Shown piece after piece: positions 26,717 to 35,831 of a stretch of 64,000 nucleotides of DNA (positions within the stretch are counted from its first letter, which is position 1; every line of letters begins with the position of its first letter). The position numbers were made by a program, and so were the translations under genes. The notes under the pieces are model-generated. The model was not told the DNA's origin and searched no databases. It saw only the letters and a list, made by a program, of their open reading frames with translations. This DNA is from Clavaria fumosa (lineage: Eukaryota > Basidiomycota > Agaricomycetes > Agaricales > Clavariaceae): contig OX637796.1 of assembly GCA_951802425.1 (NCBI GenBank), forward strand, positions 2,046,001 to 2,110,000, in the 5' to 3' direction.

Positions 26717-27786
26717 ATGGACAGTTGGAGAGTAGCCGTCCTTGGCGACCCCGCCGTTGGCAAAACAGCGCTGGCCGTTCAGGTGAGAGATCCCCTTTCG
26801 CGGCTGGACAATCACAGGCGCGCACCACACGTCGGTGCGCGGTCAGGCCCGATTCTTTTAATAGCTCTACACGTGATGCTGAACGCGTCCTCCCCTTTTT
26901 TCTTTTTTTTTGCGGTGGCGCAGTTCGCTTTCAACCTCTTCGTTGGTGAGTGGCCTTTGGGGCGCGTGTTCCTCTCGCCGCGCGGGGTTTGCTGACCGAT
27001 GTCTGTCCTTCCGCATGTCCTTGTATCGCGCAGATGTACGTCGTGCTGCCAATTTTTTTCCTCCGTTGCGGCGAACCTGACCCCGGTGTCTTCTGCCAGG
27101 TGTACGACCCCACCATAGAGGATGCCTACCAGAAGCATCTGGTGGTCGACAACCGCATGTGCTGCATCGAGGTGATCGATACGGCTGGACAAGGTCAGAG
27201 ATAGCGGTCCGCCCCCCGTACAGACGCGTCGTGCTCAACGTTTGTTGACCAGAGGACTACTCGACCCTGCGTGACCAATGGGTGCGGTACGTCATTCCGC
27301 CTACGCGCCACACGAGAACCGAGTGTCGCTGACTGAGTCTAATTTGTTTGTGCCACCTCCCCCTCCAGGGAAGGCCAGGGATTCATCCTAGTGTACTCGG
27401 TCGGCGCGCGGAGCACGTTCGAGCGGCTCGACGTGTTCCGACAGGCGATGCTGCGCGTGAAGCGCGCGAAGCCGGTCTTCATGCTCGTCGGGAACAAGTG
27501 CGACCAGGTGCACGCGCGGGAGGTGTCGAAGGAGGAGGGCGCGCAGCTCGCGCGGAGCTTCGGGTGCGACTACATTGAGACGAGCGCGAAGACGGCGATG
27601 AATGTGGAGCGCTTGTTTGCGAGCCTTGTGCGGCGGCTGAGGGCGCAGATGGGCACGGGCGCGGACGCGGGGGGCGCTGGGGCCGCTGGGGCTGCTGGGA
27701 GAGGGAGGGGGAGAGGGGGGGCGGCGGGGTTGAAGTCGGGTTTGCATGGGAAGGAGAGGACGAAGAAGCAGTGTGTCTATATGTGA
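26717..27786 (+). CDS. Ras-family GTPase A (Pro-Ala P-loop)
   Basis: Predicted 211-residue small GTPase. Exons 26717-26782, 26924-26945, 27035-27036, 27100-27193, 27253-27286 and 27369-27786 give 212 codons. The third exon is 2 bases and completes the codon for Asp before [13 protein letters not shown] (switch I). Also seen are [17 protein letters not shown] (switch II), GNKCD and ETSAK, then a Gly/Arg-rich hypervariable tail and the farnesylation box CVYM. The P-loop reads GDPAVGKT, so the residues at Ras positions 12 and 13 are Pro and Ala rather than Gly-Gly. The sequence is closest to Ras C at 34.9 kb, but its codons are far richer in G and C at third positions. It should sit on the inner face of the plasma membrane; its signalling role is unknown. 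Confidence 0.9.
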
Positions 27787-28802
27787 CCCCGCTGGCTTTG
27801 CATGCTCTCCTCTTCTTCCTCCTCCTTCTCTTCCCTCCTCCTTCTCTTCCCTCCTCCTTCTCTTCCCTCCTCGTTTGCGGTTCGGTCCGGTCGGATGGTT
27901 GCGAAAAATATGGCCTTTGTACATTTGTTGCTCTCCCTCTCTCTCTCTCGGCTGATGATACCCAGCATATGTCTTCCGCTCTAGGGTCACCTCGTTTCTC
28001 GTTTCCCCCTTTTTTTTTCTTTTGGCTCGCTCTGCTCGCATACCTTTCTCTCTCGCTCTCTCTCTATGGACTAACTCCCCCTTCTGGAACTCTTTTGCTT
28101 CTTCTCGTGTATCGGACAGGAACATAGCCGCGTGTATTTTTTTTTTCCCCCTCGTTTTTTTTCCCTCGCTTGGTTGTAACAAGGAAATCGGAGTATAGAA
28201 TCTTGCTTCTTTTTTTTCCATGGGACCGTTTCTGCCAACTGTTAGGTCTGGGCCAGACGCTTCCTGTCGTAAGCGTTGCGTTTTTGGTTTGTTCTTTTCT
28301 TTCCTTCCTTTCTTTATGTCATCGGCTGTACGGCGCCGACCGGTGTATTTTCGGGGGGATCATATTCTAATTGAGGGTTTGTTTTGTTTTGTTTTTGTTG
28401 TTTACACTTGTAGTCAGATTTGGAGATCTAAGGACGGGCTTGGCTAATCTGTCTAAAGTCATGTTCATCCGACCAAGTGCGACAACTTCTCACCAATTCT
28501 CTATTCCGCCGGTACCACTGAGATCGACCTAGCGGGCTCTGTCCCTCGTGTACCCCTCTCCTATCCCGTGTATCGCGTGTATCTCACCCGTTCTCGCCCG
28601 TTCTCGCCCGTTCTCGCCCCGCGCACACGACGCGCCCGGGCCTCGCTGCGCTGAGGATTTCTAATACTAATCCACCCCCTAACCCTCATACCTTTCCGTT
28701 CCGTTCCGGTGCTGCGCGGCACACACACACACACGAAAGAAACCAACCACGGGGCAGCAGACCGTTCGACCGGGGGCCCTCTGCCGACTGCCGCCGTTCA
28801 GG
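27787..28802. other. Spacer between RAS A and RAS B
   Basis: About 1 kb of 3' flank of Ras A, rich in CT and T runs, then the promoter of Ras B. Parts match other places: 28612-28645 resembles 26471-26510 before Ras A, and 28110-28340 resembles 32310-32530 after the decayed copy. No further gene is seen. Confidence 0.55.
28591..28620. repeat. Three 10-base tandem units before RAS B
   Basis: TTCTCGCCCG is repeated three times (last base varied) about 185 bases upstream of the Ras B start. Confidence 0.85.
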
Positions 28803-29806
28803 ATGAAAATGGACCAAGGGAAGAACAATAACGTAGACGACGTGGAGATGGACAGTTGGAGAGTCGCCGTTCTTGGCTACCCCGCCGTCGGCAAATCAGC
28901 GTTGACCTTCCGGGTGAGAGAGAAACGACACCCCCCTCTCTCTCTTCACGCAATACTGAACGAACGTCGCGCCCTCTTTTTTTTGGTCGCGCAGTTCGTC
29001 TTGGACACCTTCGCTGGTGAGTGACCCCCGGGGCGCGTGTCCCCCTCGCGGCGCGTGCTTTGCTCATCGGTGCCCGTCCTTCTTGTGTCTCGCATAGACG
29101 TACGTTGTTGTTGTTCCCCCGCCTTTCCTCCACCGTGATGACCCCGACCCTGTGTCTGCGGCAGGTGTACGACCCCACCATAGAGGACGAATACCAGAAG
29201 TATCTGGTGGTCGACCACCGCCTGTGCAACCTCAAGGTTACCGATACGGCTGGCCAAGGTCAGGGACGGCGGCCCCACCCCCGTCTACACGCGTCGTGCT
29301 CACCGCCGTTATTGACCAGAGGACTACTGGTGCTTCCACGACTCGTGGGTACGGTGCGTCCCCTTGCGTGCGCGCGTCACACGGGAACCAGGCACCGCTG
29401 AACGCCCGTGCGCCGCCCGAACAGGGACTGCCAGGGGCTCGTCCTCGTGTACTCGGTCAGCGCGCGGGACACGTTCGCGCAGCTAGACGTGTTCTGGCGG
29501 GCGCTGCAGCGCGCGGCGCCAGAGGCGGCGGTGCTCGTGCTCGTCGCGAACAAGTGCGACCTCGTGGACGCGCGCGCGGTGTCTGCGGCGGAGGGGGCGG
29601 CGCTGGCGCGTGCGTACGGCTGCGCGTTTGTGGAGACGAGCGCGAAGACGGGGGAGGGCGTGGAGCGGGTGTTTGCGGGTTTGGTAAGGCGGATGAGGGC
29701 GCAGGCTGGGCCTGGGGAAGCGGGGGCAGGTGCGCGTGCGGGGGTCGCTGGGAGGGGGAAACGGCGGGGTTTGGATGGGACGAGGAAGCGGTGCGTCTGT
29801 ATGTGA
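28803..29806 (+). CDS. Ras-family GTPase B, diverged switch II
   Basis: Predicted 214 residues from exons 28803-28913, 28995-29016, 29098-29099, 29165-29258, 29320-29353 and 29425-29806 (215 codons). The internal exon sizes (22, 2, 94, 34) equal those of Ras A and C. The protein has a 15-residue N-terminal extension (MKMDQGKNNNVDDVE) before MDSWRVAVLG. The P-loop is GYPAVGKS (Pro-Ala at positions 12-13). Switch I is VYDPTIEDEYQKY. Switch II is EDYWCFHDSWVR, very unlike the usual EEYxxxRDQW. NKCD and ETSAK are kept, and the tail ends in the prenylation box CVCM. Coding GC is extreme. The changed switch II suggests altered or lost effector and GAP contact, so this may be a neofunctionalised or early decaying copy. 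The first ATG was chosen; the Met at 28848 is an alternative. Confidence 0.85.
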
Positions 29807-30106
29807 GCCCGCTTGCTTGCTCGTCCTCCTACCTTGGTTCCTCGTTGTGCGCTGCTCGGTTCGGTCTGGTCGTGGTTGCGATATATATTTGTGCTCTCGG
29901 TGCATATGAAGATCAAAACTTGAAATTTCAATGCGTGTTGATGTACAGTAATAGAATTTCCGAATCGATACACATTTGCACATGCCATTGCAAATTGATC
30001 TAGTAAAAATATCATAAGGAGCTGAGTAGTTACCTTTGCCGCTGTAAGGGATCTGAATGTGGGAATCATCGTTGAGTGCTGTACATCATCTCTTCCATTG
30101 GAGCAC
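29807..30106. other. Convergent 3' flank of RAS B and RPC9
   Basis: About 300 bases. The left part (29815-29890) resembles the 3' flank of Ras A (TCCTCGTT..GGTTCGGTC..GGTTGCGA). No gene was seen. Confidence 0.5.
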
Positions 30107-30990
30107 CTAATCCTCTTCAACTTCGAGATCGCCCTCAATGCCAGCGCCCCCGCCAAAATCATCAAACATATCCGCCTCCTCCTCTTGCAGCCTGTCTATG
30201 CTCCAGATATCCTGGTCCGGCTCCGCAAAGATAGTCATGGGCGGGATGGCTAATGCATGGGCGGTGCTGTCCCCTGCCGCTATTCCAGGAGCCGATTGCA
30301 AAGTTGTTTGTAAGGTCGGTGATGCCGGGGGTAGTGGTGTTTTCAGCAGCGAGGCGCGCACGCGCTCCAAGATGGGCTCCATCTGGTCTGGCAAGCGGTC
30401 CTCAAGCTCTTCTACGATCTGGTGTGTGCCGCATCGCCCGCCACAATTGACTATCAAATACATGCTCCAAGGAAAAAAAGGGGGGAAAACACGATACGCA
30501 CGACGTATAGTTCGACAGGCTCTACTGGAGCGAGGTTGACGACTTGGAGCTTTTCGGCCTTGGTTAGGCCGTATGGTGCGAGATCCTTCACGAGCTGGGT
30601 GATCCCCTCGGGGTGCGACAACCTCGGCTGGAAGTCTGCGGAAAGATATTGGATGGCCTTTAATAGTTTAGAGACAGAGCGTCAGTCCCCTGGGTGGGCC
30701 ATCGTGCCCCAGCATCGTCGCTCGCACCTCAATCTCCATAGTCCTGAGGTTCTGGCCTCCAGCAACGCCGTCGTCGCCCGGGTATGTGGTGGCATGTCCT
30801 GCATGCTCTTCCTCCTTCTTGATGCGGAACGCGGTCTTGGTGCGCGCGAGATGGTCGGCTTCTAGCTCCCGGAGGAGCGCAAGCACTTCGAAGTTGGACA
30901 GAAGGGCAGAGCAGTCGTTGAGCACCTGCAACGGTGGTTGTCTGGTTGGTGGGGAAATAATGGGGAAAAAGATACCTCACGGACCTCCAT
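30107..30990 (-). CDS. RPC17: RNA polymerase III subunit RPC9 (C17)
   Basis: Predicted 226 residues. Exons 30976-30990 (15 bases), 30728-30925, 30502-30657 and 30107-30418 total 227 codons. Rpb4/RPC9-family proteins pair with Rpc8/C25 to form the Pol III stalk that contacts TFIIIB. The N-terminal segment MEVREVLNDCSALLSNFEVL and the HRDC-like part (AIQYLSADFQP, LVKDLAPYGLTKAEKLQVVN, APVEPVELYVVIVEELEDRL) fit the family. A low-complexity insert (HATTYPGDDGVAGG) lies between helices. The C-terminal 80 residues are acidic and disordered, longer than in yeast. The gene sits between Ras B and the decayed Ras tail. Confidence 0.88.
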
Positions 30991-32155
30991 TCCTGTTGTT
31001 AATGCCGTCGGACGTTTAGATATTCATGTTCAAAGAGATGACCAGGTGTGTTCGTATGTGTAGGGTGTCCTCGTGCGCGCGTCCTTGGTGCTGGTCGTGT
31101 ACGTCGGAGTTTGTGCGTGTGTATTGACAATTACTCCGCGTTTTCTGGCTCGGACTTCTCATGCTCGTTCTGTTGTCCTTGCCCAATGCCATTTTATAGT
31201 CCACTTTAACGCGTATTCTTACAAGTGGGCAATTCCCACTCACAGCGCATGACGCTTACATCAGCAACGCTTCTCTTTCACGCGAGTTCCCTTTCATGAG
31301 CACCAGGTCGTGGCACTCTCGACCCCTTCAAACGAGCCCCTCTGCGACACTTGCGCCGTGCGCCGCTGACTCGCGCTGTTTACCCAACAACAACGAGCTG
31401 CCCACTTTCGCGACCCGCTCTGCAAAATAGGATTGTGGTGCGTTATTATGCTCTCAAGGTCGCATATCATACACCGAGGTGTGCCCAAGAAACGTAGGCT
31501 TTTGGCGATTGTGCTGTGGTACGCATGCGCTGACTGACCAACATAGTGAACTGGAAAAGCGTGTCCCTAGGCAGCCTGAAAAGTTCACAGGCCTGGGGTG
31601 CTACCCGTATACTCAAACGTGTCTTCCCGCAATGGAGCGCGATCGTATGCGGCGGCGTGTGTGCTTCCTCGGTGATGACTACGGTAGCGTAATAGGGACG
31701 GTGGCGGTGGCGAGGGTGCGTGGCGCAGGGCGTACTCGCCACGCGTGCATATGGCTGGGTCGCGTCAAGGTCCTCTCTACCTTCTGCATGGCCCCAACGG
31801 GCAGTCTCCCACGCACTACCCCAATGAATGTCGAGGCGTAGCAGCTCGGCTAGACGACAACTCCCAGCTTCGAGCTGAGGGCCGCGGGCGGACACTAATG
31901 GAGGTGTCACACATATGTGGCGCCACCTGTGGGATTGGCAGGGTTGGTGTGCGGTGAGTGTAGGCGTGGGTGTGGGTGTGGGACGCCACTGGCGTGTGGG
32001 AAGCTGTGCGCAGAGGGCTTGAGAAGGGCGAACGCGGCGTGGTCATTGATATCGTAGGTGGACACCGGCGGTTGATGCACGTTGATGCATGGTGCGTTGT
32101 AACAATGCGGGGAGACGTGGGCGAGCACGAGCCACGGCATGGCCCAGCTCTGGGC
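30991..32155. other. Spacer upstream of RPC9
   Basis: About 1.2 kb. Open frames on both strands (31467-31910 minus, 31479-31841 plus) overlap each other and show no family. No gene is supported. Confidence 0.4.
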
Positions 32156-32545
32156 GCAGAGCGAGGGCGAGCAGGGGTCGCTGGGAAATGGGGGGAACGG
32201 GGTTTGGACGAGGAAGCGGTGCGTCTGTATGTGAGCCTGCTTGTTGCATATGTCTACCACTCTACGGTCACCTCGAAGTTCCTTTTCGTCGGCTACCCCT
32301 TGGATCTTTTCGGACGGGAACGTAACATAGCCGTGTGTACATAGCCGTGTGTATTCTCCCTCCCCTTTTTTTTTCTTCTTCTTTTTCTCTTTCTCTTTCT
32401 ACGCCCCCACTAGGAATTGGAGTTTTGGTTTTTTTCCATTAGACCGTTTCTGCGACACGTCTGGCCAAGCGCTTTCCTGCTTGTGCTTCTTTTTTACTCT
32501 CGTCGGCTGTGCGGAGACCGACCACTGACCACTAGAATAGGTGAA
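32156..32545 (+). pseudogene. Decayed Ras tail and 3' flank (duplicate of RAS A/B)
   Basis: Bases 32170-32240 match the last exon of Ras B (29730-29815): GGGTCGCTGGG, then a GGGGTTTGGA..ACGAGGAAGC stretch and GGTGCGTCTGTATGTGAGCC. One frame still reads T-R-K-R-C-V-C-M-stop, the same prenylation box as Ras B. Downstream, 32310-32530 resembles the 3' flank of Ras A (28110-28340), for example AACATAGCCG-GTGTA and the CCAT-AGACCGTTTCTG segment. No P-loop, switch or NKxD exon precedes it, so the GTPase domain is gone. This is a broken copy, not a gene. Confidence 0.75.
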
Positions 32546-32797
32546 ACTGTTGATAAAAAAGGGAACCAGGCGTTGTCGCGTTTCGGGCCCCGGCTGGTGG
32601 ACTTGTGCAAAAAGGTCCGACCAGGCCAGTACATCCGCCCCTTTGTTCTTTCTTTCTTTCTTGCTTTCGGGGGCAGGCGGGGATTATGGGCTTCCGGATG
32701 GAAGTTGCGTGTGACATGGGAGAGGCGATTTCCTTTCCTTTTCTTTCCGAGGAGGAGGGAAGAACATTGAAGCTGGATATGCTAGTCTATTGTACTT

Positions 32798-32929
32798 GTG
32801 TTGTTGTTGTTGTTGTTGTTGTCGTACTATACGACTCACCAGTGTACTCACCAGTGTACTCACCAGTGTACTCACCAGTGTACTCACCAGTGTACTCACC
32901 AGTGTACTCACCAGTGTACTCACCAGTGT
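32798..32929. repeat. GTT run followed by 8 x 12-base minisatellite
   Basis: A GTT/TTG run (32798-32822) is followed at 32834-32929 by eight perfect copies of ACTCACCAGTGT. The unit length is a multiple of three, so open frames run through it (SPVY repeats), but there is no sign of a gene around it. Perfect copies imply recent expansion or ongoing homogenisation. Confidence 0.95.
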
Positions 32930-34903
32930 AAAGGCAGCGGTGGTACAGTACTGGTACAATATAGGGAGATTTCCTTTTATAGATGTATTTGTACTAATTT
33001 GTTAGATTGGCTTTTTCACTTTTTTTCTTAAACCGAATGGTCGGGAAGGAAATGTCATTTGCGGTTCACCCAAAGTACTGTCCCGAAAAGATATCGCACG
33101 ATGGCGAACGATGGCGAAGTTGGGTGTGTGGGTGTGCTAAGGGTACGTACACAACAGCTTGGCCAGGCTTACTAGCTGTCCACGTGAACGGGGCTATTGA
33201 CCGTTATCTCGAACTAAATCTCGATGTTTGAGCAGGTGAGGGATCACGAAGGCAGTCTTGTTGGGTCTTGGACAGGAATTCGAAGCATGGTATTTGCGAT
33301 TTCTTGGATCATGGGATAGCGGTTGCGGGACATTTTTCCCTTGCTCCAGATCCGAACCGACGACAAAGTGAGCGATATAGAAACGATAAACGGGTCACGT
33401 CTGCCAGGCTAGGAACGCATATGGTGGTGGGTGGTGGATAGCCAAGAGATAACTCACTTCCGGCAAGTCGACGCACCCGTGTGCAAACAAAACAACGAAG
33501 CATGTGAGCCGCCGCTCAAGCTTGGTATTACGACGCGCTCGTCCGAGGGGTCGGCCAGATGATGGGTGTGTCTGGCTGTGTCGCCGCCAACCGTGGGCCG
33601 GCGGCAACTGAGGGAAAAAAAAAAGCTTCCGCTTTGGACTTTATTGCAGAACAAGGAAGAAAACGCGGTCGTAAGTGAGCTCATATCGCTCCTCTCTCTC
33701 TGGTGTCATATCTGGTGACACGCCGTCCGCTTGTCGCAGCCGGTGTCCCGTTCTCTCTCGTCCCTTTCTTGGCTTAGAGGATCGCCGGGTAATGGTCTGA
33801 CAGCTCATCGTTGACATCGTCGAAAGCCCCGCATCGCTAGACAAGAACGAACTCTCCTTTTTTATTTATGGGGCATCGCTTATTGCCGCGAGAGATTGTA
33901 TTCTTAAAAAAAAAACGTACGTGTTTATATGCTCGCATGCAATTCAATGACTCGCTTGTTCAGAGACGAAAGGCGATGTTTTCATTTCTCTCACGAAATC
34001 GATGGGATAGCGTCGTGTGTACTGCGTTTGACCTATTTTTCTCCGTCCCACACGATTACCACCCACCCAACCCCCCCCGGATGAGACCATGAGGCTCACT
34101 GGCTGAACTCAAAACCACGCGCTGTTCATTCCCCCCCCCTCCCTTTGCCTTTCCTATACTTGGATTGTGCAAATTTCCGAAACTTGAAATCTCGATTTCT
34201 GATTGATCGGATACTTTGAACTGAGCGATTACTTAGATAGCAGTATCCGTATCATGACTTTCCTACGTCGCTAAATGGTTGGGACATGTGCTATCACAAT
34301 CACATTACCCGTTGCTGTAATGTAATATGATATAATCGGATCGGATATATTTACCACCGTGTGAATTGATTACTATAAACTAACTTAGAATAATAACAAA
34401 CCATAACAACTCAGTGGCCCATTTTCCCTTTTCTCCCTTTGGCGGCCTATTTGACTCTCTTGGTACTTACTCTCTCAAATCAACATACTCCTTCCTCTTC
34501 TCCCCCCCTTTCCCGCCCTCGTCCTCCTCCTCATATATACTCCTCTCCTCTTCCTCCTCATCTCTCTCTCTCTTCTTCCTCTCTTACACTTTCGCATTGC
34601 ATCGTTCACGACCCTTACACGAATTCGCAACGAAACTTCTCTCCTCCGCCCCCCAAACCCTCAAACGACCACTCTCCCGATCTGGCGTCTCCCCCCCCCA
34701 ACCTCGACGTCATTTGCGCGCACAGAAAAGCGGCAACAACTTTGCCTCTTCTCCACCCTCTCTCGGCCCCGTTACTTCTCTTCTTGACCCACAACGTTCT
34801 TTTCCCTCCAACCTCCCAGCGGATCTTATTCATTTTTGAGGTCAGACCACCCCATTTAATCCTACAAGGTCGTGCTGGTCTCATCTCTGCTTGCTCCTCA
34901 GAA
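32930..34903. other. Spacer before RAS C
   Basis: About 2 kb with no recognisable gene. The last 450 bases are a strongly CT-rich leader with ATATATA near 34535, as expected for the Ras C promoter. Confidence 0.45.
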
Positions 34904-35831
34904 ATGGACAACTGGAGGGTGGCAGTCCTTGGCGACGGTGGTGTGGGTAAGACAGCGTTGGCTGTCCAGGTGAGCCCTTTCTATCTATTCTGCTATGCAA
35001 CATCAATCATTCTTTGCTCACTCATCGTTCCGGGCTGACTTAAATAGTTTACTTTGAATTGTTTTGTCGGTGAGCATCGCCTTGAGCTTGGGCTTGGCAC
35101 GCTTCGCTCATGATTGTGCTTTGACCTACCAACCACCAACACCATCACAACAGAGGTACGTCTTGGCCTTTTACCTCCATATTGGCAACAGCCGACCGAG
35201 ATTTTGCCGAACAGACTTATGACCCGACGATAGAAGATGCTTACCGGAAACAACTGGTTGTGGACAACCAGATGTGCTTTATAGAAGTCATTGATACGGC
35301 GGGGCAGGGTAAGGCAGTTTGTTTATAACCCGGAATAGTTCCCGAACTGAGTTGAACGCGCGTCGTGTAGAAGAGTATGCCACGCTTCGGGATCAATGGG
35401 TTCGGTTAGTGCCTCTGCCCGACCCTTAGCCTTGCTCGTCTGACTGTTCGTGTTCTATATATAGAGAAGGACAAGGCTTTATCCTTGTCTACTCAATCGC
35501 CTCACGTTCCACTTTCGAACGACTCGAGGTGTTCAGACAATCAATGATGAGGGTCAAGCGAACAAAACCGACTTTTATACTGGTCGGCAACAAAAGCGAT
35601 AAGACCTACGAGCGGGAGGTGTCCAAGGAGGAGGGCGCCCTGCGTGCACGAAACTATGGATGCGAATTCATAGAGACATCCGCGAAGACGGCCCAGAACG
35701 TTAACCTGCTCTTTATGAACTTGATCCGGGGTCTGCGCAAAACACGAGAATCTGACCAGACGCAGGTCGTCGGCAACCCTCTCCGGCCGCCTCCACGTGA
35801 AGAGAAGAAGAAGAAGTGTATCATCATGTAG
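34904..35831 (+). CDS. Ras-family GTPase C, canonical (Ras2-like)
   Basis: Predicted 194-residue Ras protein. Exons 34904-34969, 35048-35069, 35153-35154, 35215-35308, 35371-35404 and 35465-35831 give 195 codons. All key motifs are standard: P-loop GDGGVGKT, switch [42 protein letters not shown], a basic tail (REEKKKK) and the prenylation box CIIM. The 2-base third exon (AG, between CAACAG and GTACGT) completes a Glu codon. An alternative acceptor at CCGACCGAG would instead insert four residues into switch I, which makes the 2-base exon the better model. The pattern F-V-E-T-Y-D and E-E-Y-x-x-L-R-D-Q-W is that of basidiomycete Ras2. This is probably the parental copy of A and B; its codon use is ordinary. 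Confidence 0.93.

What the first reader, a model, noticed from the sequence alone, without database searches (positions are those of the whole stretch)
26717..35831. All three Ras genes contain a 2-base exon in switch I
In Ras A (27035-27036, AT), Ras B (29098-29099, AC) and Ras C (35153-35154, AG) a long intron region can only be joined in frame and at the normal Ras length if two bases are retained between an AG acceptor and a GTACGT donor. The flanking exons are 22 and 94 bases in all three. The 2-base exon completes the codon just before the Y-D-P-T-I-E-D core. A 2-base exon is below the size usually thought recognisable. The repeated (C/T)AG-NN-GTACG(T) context suggests either recursive splicing or exon definition by a shared element. 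It predates the duplication.
Basis: partly seen in the sequence, partly recalled or inferred. Interest (0 to 1): 0.85.

Follow-up and report, generated by a model that had tools for sequence, protein, structure and literature searches.

The report
Two-base exon in fungal Ras genes
Three Ras signalling genes of a mushroom-type fungus very probably each contain an exon only two bases long that completes one codon of the protein's switch region, and public gene predictions for many related fungi go wrong at exactly this spot, which suggests that the tiny exon is old and widely overlooked.

Summary
Each of the three ras2-type genes has a 22-base exon, an intron, two bases between (C/T)AG and GTACGT, a second intron and a 94-base exon. 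The two bases are AT 27034-27035, AC 29098-29099 and AG 35154-35155. They complete codon 30 (D, D, E), the start of switch I. With them each gene gives a full Ras protein with a CaaX end; without them the frame is lost. Two further ras2 copies in this genome have the same layout: five of five found. In relatives, 122 of 122 listed proteins from non-NCBI sources (mostly 0.9-3 kb contigs, taken to be spliced transcripts) have standard length here. In the one unbiased list, 11 of 37 NCBI/UniRef proteins carry an internal indel, always at this junction, against 0 of 83 others. Targeted searches raise this to 55 proteins from 51 taxa in 12 Agaricomycete orders. Best reading: a real, ancient, constitutive 2-nt exon, spliced by intron definition in two successive steps and widely misannotated. 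One-nucleotide exons are already published in plants and Fusarium, so it is a new member of a known kind. No RNA from this genome and no DNA of relatives was available.

The parts
26717..27786 (+). Ras A gene, coding exons 26717-26782, 26924-26945, 27034-27035, 27100-27193, 27253-27286, 27369-27786 (stop included); 211 aa, CVYM end
   Evidence: Pfam Ras 168.6 bits
27034..27035 (+). 2-nt exon AT of Ras A (codon 30 GAT, D)
26946..27033 (+). intron 2 of Ras A, GTGAGT...GCGCAG, 88 nt, branch-like CTGAC with A 38 nt before the end
27036..27099 (+). intron 3 of Ras A, GTACGT...TGCCAG, 64 nt, branch-like CTGAC with A 19 nt before the end
28848..29806 (+). Ras B gene, coding exons 28848-28913, 28995-29016, 29098-29099, 29165-29258, 29320-29353, 29425-29806 (stop included); 199 aa, CVCM end
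   Evidence: Pfam Ras 159.6 bits
29098..29099 (+). 2-nt exon AC of Ras B (codon 30 GAC, D)
29017..29097 (+). intron 2 of Ras B, GTGAGT...GCATAG, 81 nt
29100..29164 (+). intron 3 of Ras B, GTACGT...CGGCAG, 65 nt
34904..35831 (+). Ras C gene (closest to the ras2 of other Agaricomycetes), coding exons 34904-34969, 35048-35069, 35154-35155, 35215-35308, 35371-35404, 35465-35831 (stop included); 194 aa, CIIM end
   Evidence: Pfam Ras 169.6 bits
35154..35155 (+). 2-nt exon AG of Ras C (codon 30 GAG, E)
35070..35153 (+). intron 2 of Ras C, GTGAGC...CAACAG, 84 nt
35156..35214 (+). intron 3 of Ras C, GTACGT...GAACAG, 59 nt, branch-like CCGAC with A 19 nt before the end

Best explanation
Each ras2 gene carries two ordinary short GT-AG introns only two bases apart, so the piece between them is a 2-nt exon that supplies the last two bases of codon 30 (D or E), at the start of switch I. 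Shown from sequence: the frame and length requirement; canonical splice sites on both sides; branch-like motifs in both introns; presence in five of five ras2 copies found in this genome; and, in relatives, indels in public gene models exactly at this junction. Inferred: the two introns are recognised separately by intron definition. The 3' site of the first and the U1-binding stretch of the second overlap, so they cannot be handled at once and are removed one after the other. Either order should work, because the three bases before the second donor read GAN both before and after the first splice. Which intron leaves first is unknown; I lean weakly to the downstream one, which is shorter and has its branch-like site 17-19 nt from the acceptor in all five copies. 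Also inferred: the exon is constitutive and at least as old as the main Agaricomycete orders.
For: Five of five ras2 copies have (C/T)AG-AN-GTAYGT between a 22-base exon and exon 4, and all encode D or E at codon 30, the two bases varying only at the third codon position. Enumeration of GT-AG solutions finds one exact-length solution with consensus-like sites per gene, the 2-nt exon, in all five. Without the two bases the profile score falls from 374.9, 317.4 and 210.7 bits to 64.4, 43.8 and 23.4 (C, A, B). Ras C intron 2 matches that of A at only 41 of 82 aligned positions, yet the AGANGTAYGT block is kept. In one search's 120 listed proteins (of 1337), 0 of 83 non-NCBI and 11 of 37 NCBI/UniRef proteins have an internal indel in the first 165 residues, all 11 at residues 28-30 and none at another exon junction (Fisher p 7e-7). 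Over three searches, 122 of 122 non-NCBI proteins are standard; 55 of 87 NCBI/UniRef proteins are not (49 lack residues 29-30, 6 have insertions), from 51 taxa; two of those searches used broken forms as queries and so favour them. Eight genera hold both forms. Pyrrhoderma noxium FVEVRTYDP, an Auriculariales species FVEVCTYDP and Desarmillaria FVEVCLMATGPDTYDP read as AG plus GTACGT or GTATGT translated (back-translation, not DNA).
Against: No RNA of this genome was available. No DNA of any relative could be read, so conservation outside this genome is inferred from proteins. A non-AG acceptor two bases upstream of exon 4 gives equal (C) or 1.4 bits higher (A, B) profile scores. That the non-NCBI contigs are transcripts is an inference. 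32 of 87 NCBI/UniRef proteins are of standard length, and whether their genes have the 2-nt exon annotated or lack the introns is unknown. The motif count in the window alone is weak (5 of 100 shuffles reach it).
Confidence: 0.9

Rival explanations
1. A single intron of 143-161 nt with a non-AG 3' end: the terminal AG is kept as exon and codon 30 reads GAG (E) in every copy. There is then no micro-exon.
For: It keeps frame and length in A, B and C and scores equal (C) or 1.4 bits higher (A, B) than the 2-nt model, because E30 is usual in the family. In Ras C the mRNA would be identical, so cDNA of Ras C cannot tell the two apart.
Against: The introns would end in CC, GC or AC after a GT donor. 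It leaves unexplained the conserved acceptor, donor and second branch-like motif inside the stretch in all five copies, and the VEVR/VEVC insertions in three other fungi.
Confidence: 0.06
2. The donor four bases upstream (GTTGGT or GTCGGT) is used, giving a Ras protein that lacks residues 29-30, as many public gene models have it; as the main product, or as an in-frame alternative isoform.
For: It is in frame in A, C and both contig-10 copies, and 49 public proteins have this form.
Against: 0 of 122 non-NCBI proteins have it. It is impossible with a GT donor in Ras B. It scores 9.0 (A) and 13.1 (C) bits lower. The donors are weak beside GTGAGT/GTGAGC. Eight genera hold both forms in their annotations, which looks like gene-finder behaviour.
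Confidence: 0.03
3. In Ras C another acceptor in intron 3 (CCGACCGAG, or CAACAG 9 bases before it) is used, adding 4 or 7 residues in switch I.
For: Both are in frame with no stop.
Against: They score 10.4 and 14.3 bits below the 2-nt model. No such length-near option exists in A, B or the contig-10 copies, and no relative among the 209 listed has these insertions.
Confidence: 0.01

Closest known systems
One-nucleotide exons of APC11 and VPS55 in plants (PMC4674806, PMC8831610; passages read)
   Same: An exon too small for exon definition, between two canonical introns, needed for the frame, conserved over a large clade and missing from reference annotations. PMC4674806 proposes intron definition combined with stepwise removal.
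   Different: One base rather than two, plants, other genes; RNA evidence exists there and not here.
One-nucleotide exon of CYP621A in Fusarium (PMC12940212; abstract, first third and Discussion read)
   Same: A fungal gene, out-of-phase exons inside a conserved motif, resolved by an ultra-small exon; conserved in orthologues.
   Different: One genus-level group of P450 genes, supported by SRA reads; here a core signalling gene with signs across 12 orders, without reads.
Micro-exons of Phanerochaete P450 genes (PMC1184071; passages read) and 3-nt exons of a Dactylellina lipase gene (PMC5639578; passages read)
   Same: Fungal micro-exons beside short introns.
   Different: Shortest exon reported is 6 bp in the former and 3 nt in the latter; both are longer than 2 nt.
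Stwintrons, nested spliceosomal twin introns of fungi (search listing and abstracts' beginnings; passages of PMC5639578)
   Same: Two introns in one place that must be removed in consecutive steps.
   Different: In a stwintron the internal intron splits a splicing element of the external one and no coding base remains between; here two coding bases remain and no element is split.

Membership tests
Ultra-small (1-2 nt) constitutive exons | One or two bases flanked by canonical AG and GT splice sites of two introns | tested here: met
   Five of five ras2 copies
Ultra-small (1-2 nt) constitutive exons | Needed to keep reading frame and protein length | tested here: met
Ultra-small (1-2 nt) constitutive exons | Conserved in orthologues of other species | tested here: inconclusive
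   Protein-level signs only; DNA of relatives not obtainable
Ultra-small (1-2 nt) constitutive exons | Included in mature mRNA | not testable with these tools
   No reads of this genome; transcript-like proteins of other species have the standard length but do not show the DNA
Stwintron | A splicing element of an external intron is interrupted by an internal intron | tested here: not met
   Both introns have complete ends and two coding bases lie between them
Recursive splicing at a zero-nucleotide ratchet point | Acceptor AG directly followed by donor GT, no exon | tested here: not met
   Two bases lie between AG and GT in all five copies
Ras family, fungal ras2 branch | Ras domain above Pfam cut-off and C-terminal CaaX-type end | tested here: met
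   PF00071 168.6, 159.6 and 169.6 bits against cut-off 21.6; CVYM, CVCM, CIIM

The most novel reading that the evidence does not exclude
The junction is a conserved choice across Agaricomycetes: inclusion of the 2-nt exon, or use of the in-frame donor four bases upstream, would give two Ras2 isoforms that differ by residues 29-30 of switch I, so that the deleted forms in databases are partly real and tune signalling.
Probability: 0.06. Interest if true: 0.85.

Novelty: new member of a known kind. Interest (0 to 1): 0.6.

Why it matters
If true, a core signalling gene of mushroom-forming fungi has depended on a 2-base exon since early in the class, and dozens of public Ras2 sequences are wrong in the effector region. 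It offers a deep natural series for asking how the spliceosome handles two introns that cannot be recognised together, and it gives a simple correction rule for gene prediction.

Tried and rejected
A stable RNA structure around the exon was sought in 150-base stretches of the three genes and not found. DNA of relatives was sought in bacterial/archaeal genome contigs (20 stretches matched a pattern, none a relative) and in viral contigs (none). Three Ras1-type genes in tandem (L009) and a Rap-like gene (L010) of the same genome read through this position without an intron, so the feature belongs to the ras2 branch here. Stwintron and zero-base recursive models do not fit. A bacterial-type promoter/terminator scan is irrelevant to a fungal gene. 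My first exon tables had off-by-one errors and were replaced; the script stopped while printing and one search printed the rest.

Literature: searches for microexon with basidiomycete, 1- and 2-nt exon phrases, stwintron, Ras2 with microexon terms, micro-exon with fungi and ras, S. commune ras1 and micro-exon with mushroom terms (6,843 papers, 15 listed, none of those with micro-exon) listed, in what was shown, no paper on a 2-nt exon in a fungal Ras gene. Lists were capped. Passages of PMC3990503, PMC8022950 and PMC4317164 held nothing on 2-nt exons. Only open-licence PMC papers are held, so older subscription papers on mushroom ras genes could not be checked.
Full report
WHAT IS THERE. The window lies on contig 3 of a 48.8-Mb genome in 17 contigs. 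The named homologues of its Ras C protein are Agaricomycetes (class looked up for 12 species, otherwise recalled). Three ras2-type genes lie on the + strand. Rebuilt from the sequence, all have six coding exons of 66, 22, 2, 94, 34 and 418/382/367 bases and encode 211, 199 and 194 residues ending in CVYM, CVCM and CIIM. Pfam Ras matches at 168.6, 159.6 and 169.6 bits. Numbering equals that of H-Ras through this region (recalled). The 2-nt exon supplies the last two bases of codon 30: GAT, GAC and GAG.

IS IT REQUIRED. I enumerated GT-AG solutions between exon 2 and the YDP core, introns of at least 40 bases, for all five ras2 copies (details for A, B, C). Joining exon 2 to exon 4 directly breaks the frame: 64.4, 43.8 and 23.4 bits against 374.9, 317.4 and 210.7 for C, A and B with the two bases. 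In each of the five copies exactly one exact-length solution has consensus-like sites, the 2-nt exon. Single-intron, in-frame joins number 2, 2, 7, 1 and 1 in A, B, C, L011 and L012, and none keeps the length. In A, C and both contig-10 copies a donor four bases upstream gives a protein lacking residues 29-30; in Ras B that donor is GCTGGT. In Ras C two acceptors inside intron 3 would add 4 or 7 residues. One other exact-length solution exists in A and in C, a 6-base exon with weak donors.

CHANCE. YAGNNGTAYGT occurs three times on both strands of the 64-kb window, at exactly these three places; 0.94 were expected and 5 of 100 shuffles reached three. The count alone is weak; the placement is what counts. 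With about 60 eligible positions per gene the chance is about 4e-4 for one gene (my arithmetic). Ras A, B and the contig-10 copies are close relatives, but Ras C is far from them: its intron 2 matches that of A at 41 of 82 aligned positions. In the five-way alignment AGANGTAYGT stands out as a conserved block, like the real donor GGTGAG; a CCTCC block and a branch-like C(C/T)GACC are also kept.

OTHER COPIES. Two more ras2 copies lie on contig 10 (L011, L012). Both have a 22-base exon, GTGAGT, CAG, AC, GTATGT. L011 has a stop in exon 1 and is probably a pseudogene. A DNA search with the Ras A stretch found A, B and these two, a protein search added C and no further ras2-type copy among 20 scored matches (such counts are lower bounds), and a direct pattern search found four of the five, Ras B differing by its GCTG. 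So it is five of five found. All encode D or E at codon 30, the two bases varying only at the third codon position. Three Ras1-type genes and one Rap-like gene of the same genome have no intron here.

RELATIVES. Only proteins of other species could be read. The first search lists the best 120 of 1337. I split them by source: 37 have an NCBI or UniRef/nr record, 83 do not (JGI, 'lgn', ENA, EukProt). The longest contigs of 82 of those 83 are 905-7913 bases, 8 of them above 3 kb, and each holds a complete frame of a gene that is intron-rich here; I infer spliced transcripts. One (P0007) carries a name of the kind given to transcript ORFs and has no contig listed. Aligned to Ras C over the first 165 residues, the 83 show no internal indel (7 differ at the N-terminus). 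The 37 show 11, all at residues 28-30: seven lack residues 29-30, four have insertions of 2, 2, 9 and 17 residues. None falls at the other exon junctions. Fisher p is about 7e-7.

Two further searches used broken forms as queries and are biased towards them. Of the 209 distinct proteins listed by the three searches, 122 of 122 non-NCBI are of standard length; 32 of 87 NCBI/UniRef are standard and 55 are not. Two standard-length ones have Q or G instead of E at residue 30 (P0022, P0036). The 55 comprise 49 with NCF-TYDP and six insertions, from 51 named species or strains. Orders: Agaricales, Boletales, Russulales, Polyporales, Hymenochaetales, Thelephorales, Corticiales, Gloeophyllales, Atheliales, Hysterangiales, Sistotremastrales (one species of each looked up, two of Hymenochaetales; other species recalled) and Auriculariales (from the record's name). 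The deletion is what a gene finder produces when it must keep the frame with one intron: where V29 (GTN) is followed by G and a GT donor, a GTNGGT donor lies four bases upstream. Eight genera hold both forms (Paxillus, Suillus, Schizophyllum, Boletus, Thelephora, Trametes, Phanerochaete, Pholiota), which points to annotation, not biology. Three insertions are telling: Pyrrhoderma FV-E-VR-TYDP (P0092), Auriculariales sp. FV-E-VC-TYDP (P0121) and Desarmillaria FV-E-VCLMATGPD-TYDP (P0079). After E30 they read V-R or V-C, as AG followed by GTACGT or GTATGT would; this is back-translation, so consistent rather than proven. The other three insertions (P0066, P0085, P0159) do not show this.

A RIVAL THAT THE PROTEIN CANNOT EXCLUDE. 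If the intron ended two bases before the final AG, codon 30 would be GAG everywhere. A profile of the 122 non-NCBI relatives scores this equal in C and 1.4 bits higher in A and B, because E30 is usual. In Ras C the mRNA would be identical. It requires introns ending in CC, GC or AC and ignores the conserved splice sites between. Ras A and B mRNA would decide it.

HOW IT PROBABLY WORKS. Over the five copies the flanking introns are 59-89 nt, with GT-AG ends and a branch-like motif (intron 3: 17-19 nt before the end in all five; intron 2: 31-39 nt in four, several candidates at 14-43 nt in Ras C). Fungal introns of this size are recognised as units (general knowledge). With two bases between acceptor and donor both sites cannot be occupied at once, so the introns must leave one after the other. 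The three bases before the second donor are GAN whether or not the first intron has gone, so order should not matter to U1 pairing (sequence shown; consequence inferred). No unusually stable fold was found.

AGAINST WHAT IS KNOWN. One-nucleotide exons are published for APC11 and VPS55 in plants (PMC4674806, PMC8831610; passages) and for CYP621A in Fusarium (PMC12940212; abstract, first third and Discussion), with RNA support. The Fusarium paper states that exons of 2-5 bp were found earlier in Arabidopsis, Drosophila and humans. PMC5639578 mentions 3-nt exons in a fungal lipase gene. So the kind is known. The gene, the clade and the breadth of misannotation appear new as far as the searches show.

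Noticed in passing
window 32167-32247, + strand: A fragment 82% identical over 90 aligned bases to the 3' end of Ras B, keeping the codons for TRKRCVCM and stop: a remnant of another ras2 duplication between Ras B and Ras C.
   Followed up: partly
window 26717-26782 and 28848-28913; L012, L011: Ras A, Ras B and L012 have P12 A13 in place of G12 G13 in the phosphate loop, and L011 has S12 A13, while Ras C keeps G12 G13: the extra copies have changed a usually critical position.
   Followed up: no
L011 (G000 contig 10, 1756400-1758000): This ras2 copy has a stop codon in exon 1 (MEN*) and looks like a pseudogene.
   Followed up: no
intron 3 of the three window genes, L011 and L012: A TTTNCCTCC-like pyrimidine block downstream of the second donor is kept in all five copies although the introns are otherwise diverged; a candidate splicing element or simply the pyrimidine tract.
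   Followed up: no
window 32834-32941: A 12-base tandem repeat ACTCACCAGTGT between Ras B and Ras C.
   Followed up: no
window 28803-28847: Ras B has an in-frame ATG 45 bases upstream of the start used here, which would add 15 residues (sequence).
   Followed up: no
L009 (G000 contig 10, 741200-747500): Three Ras1-type genes lie in tandem on one strand.
   Followed up: no
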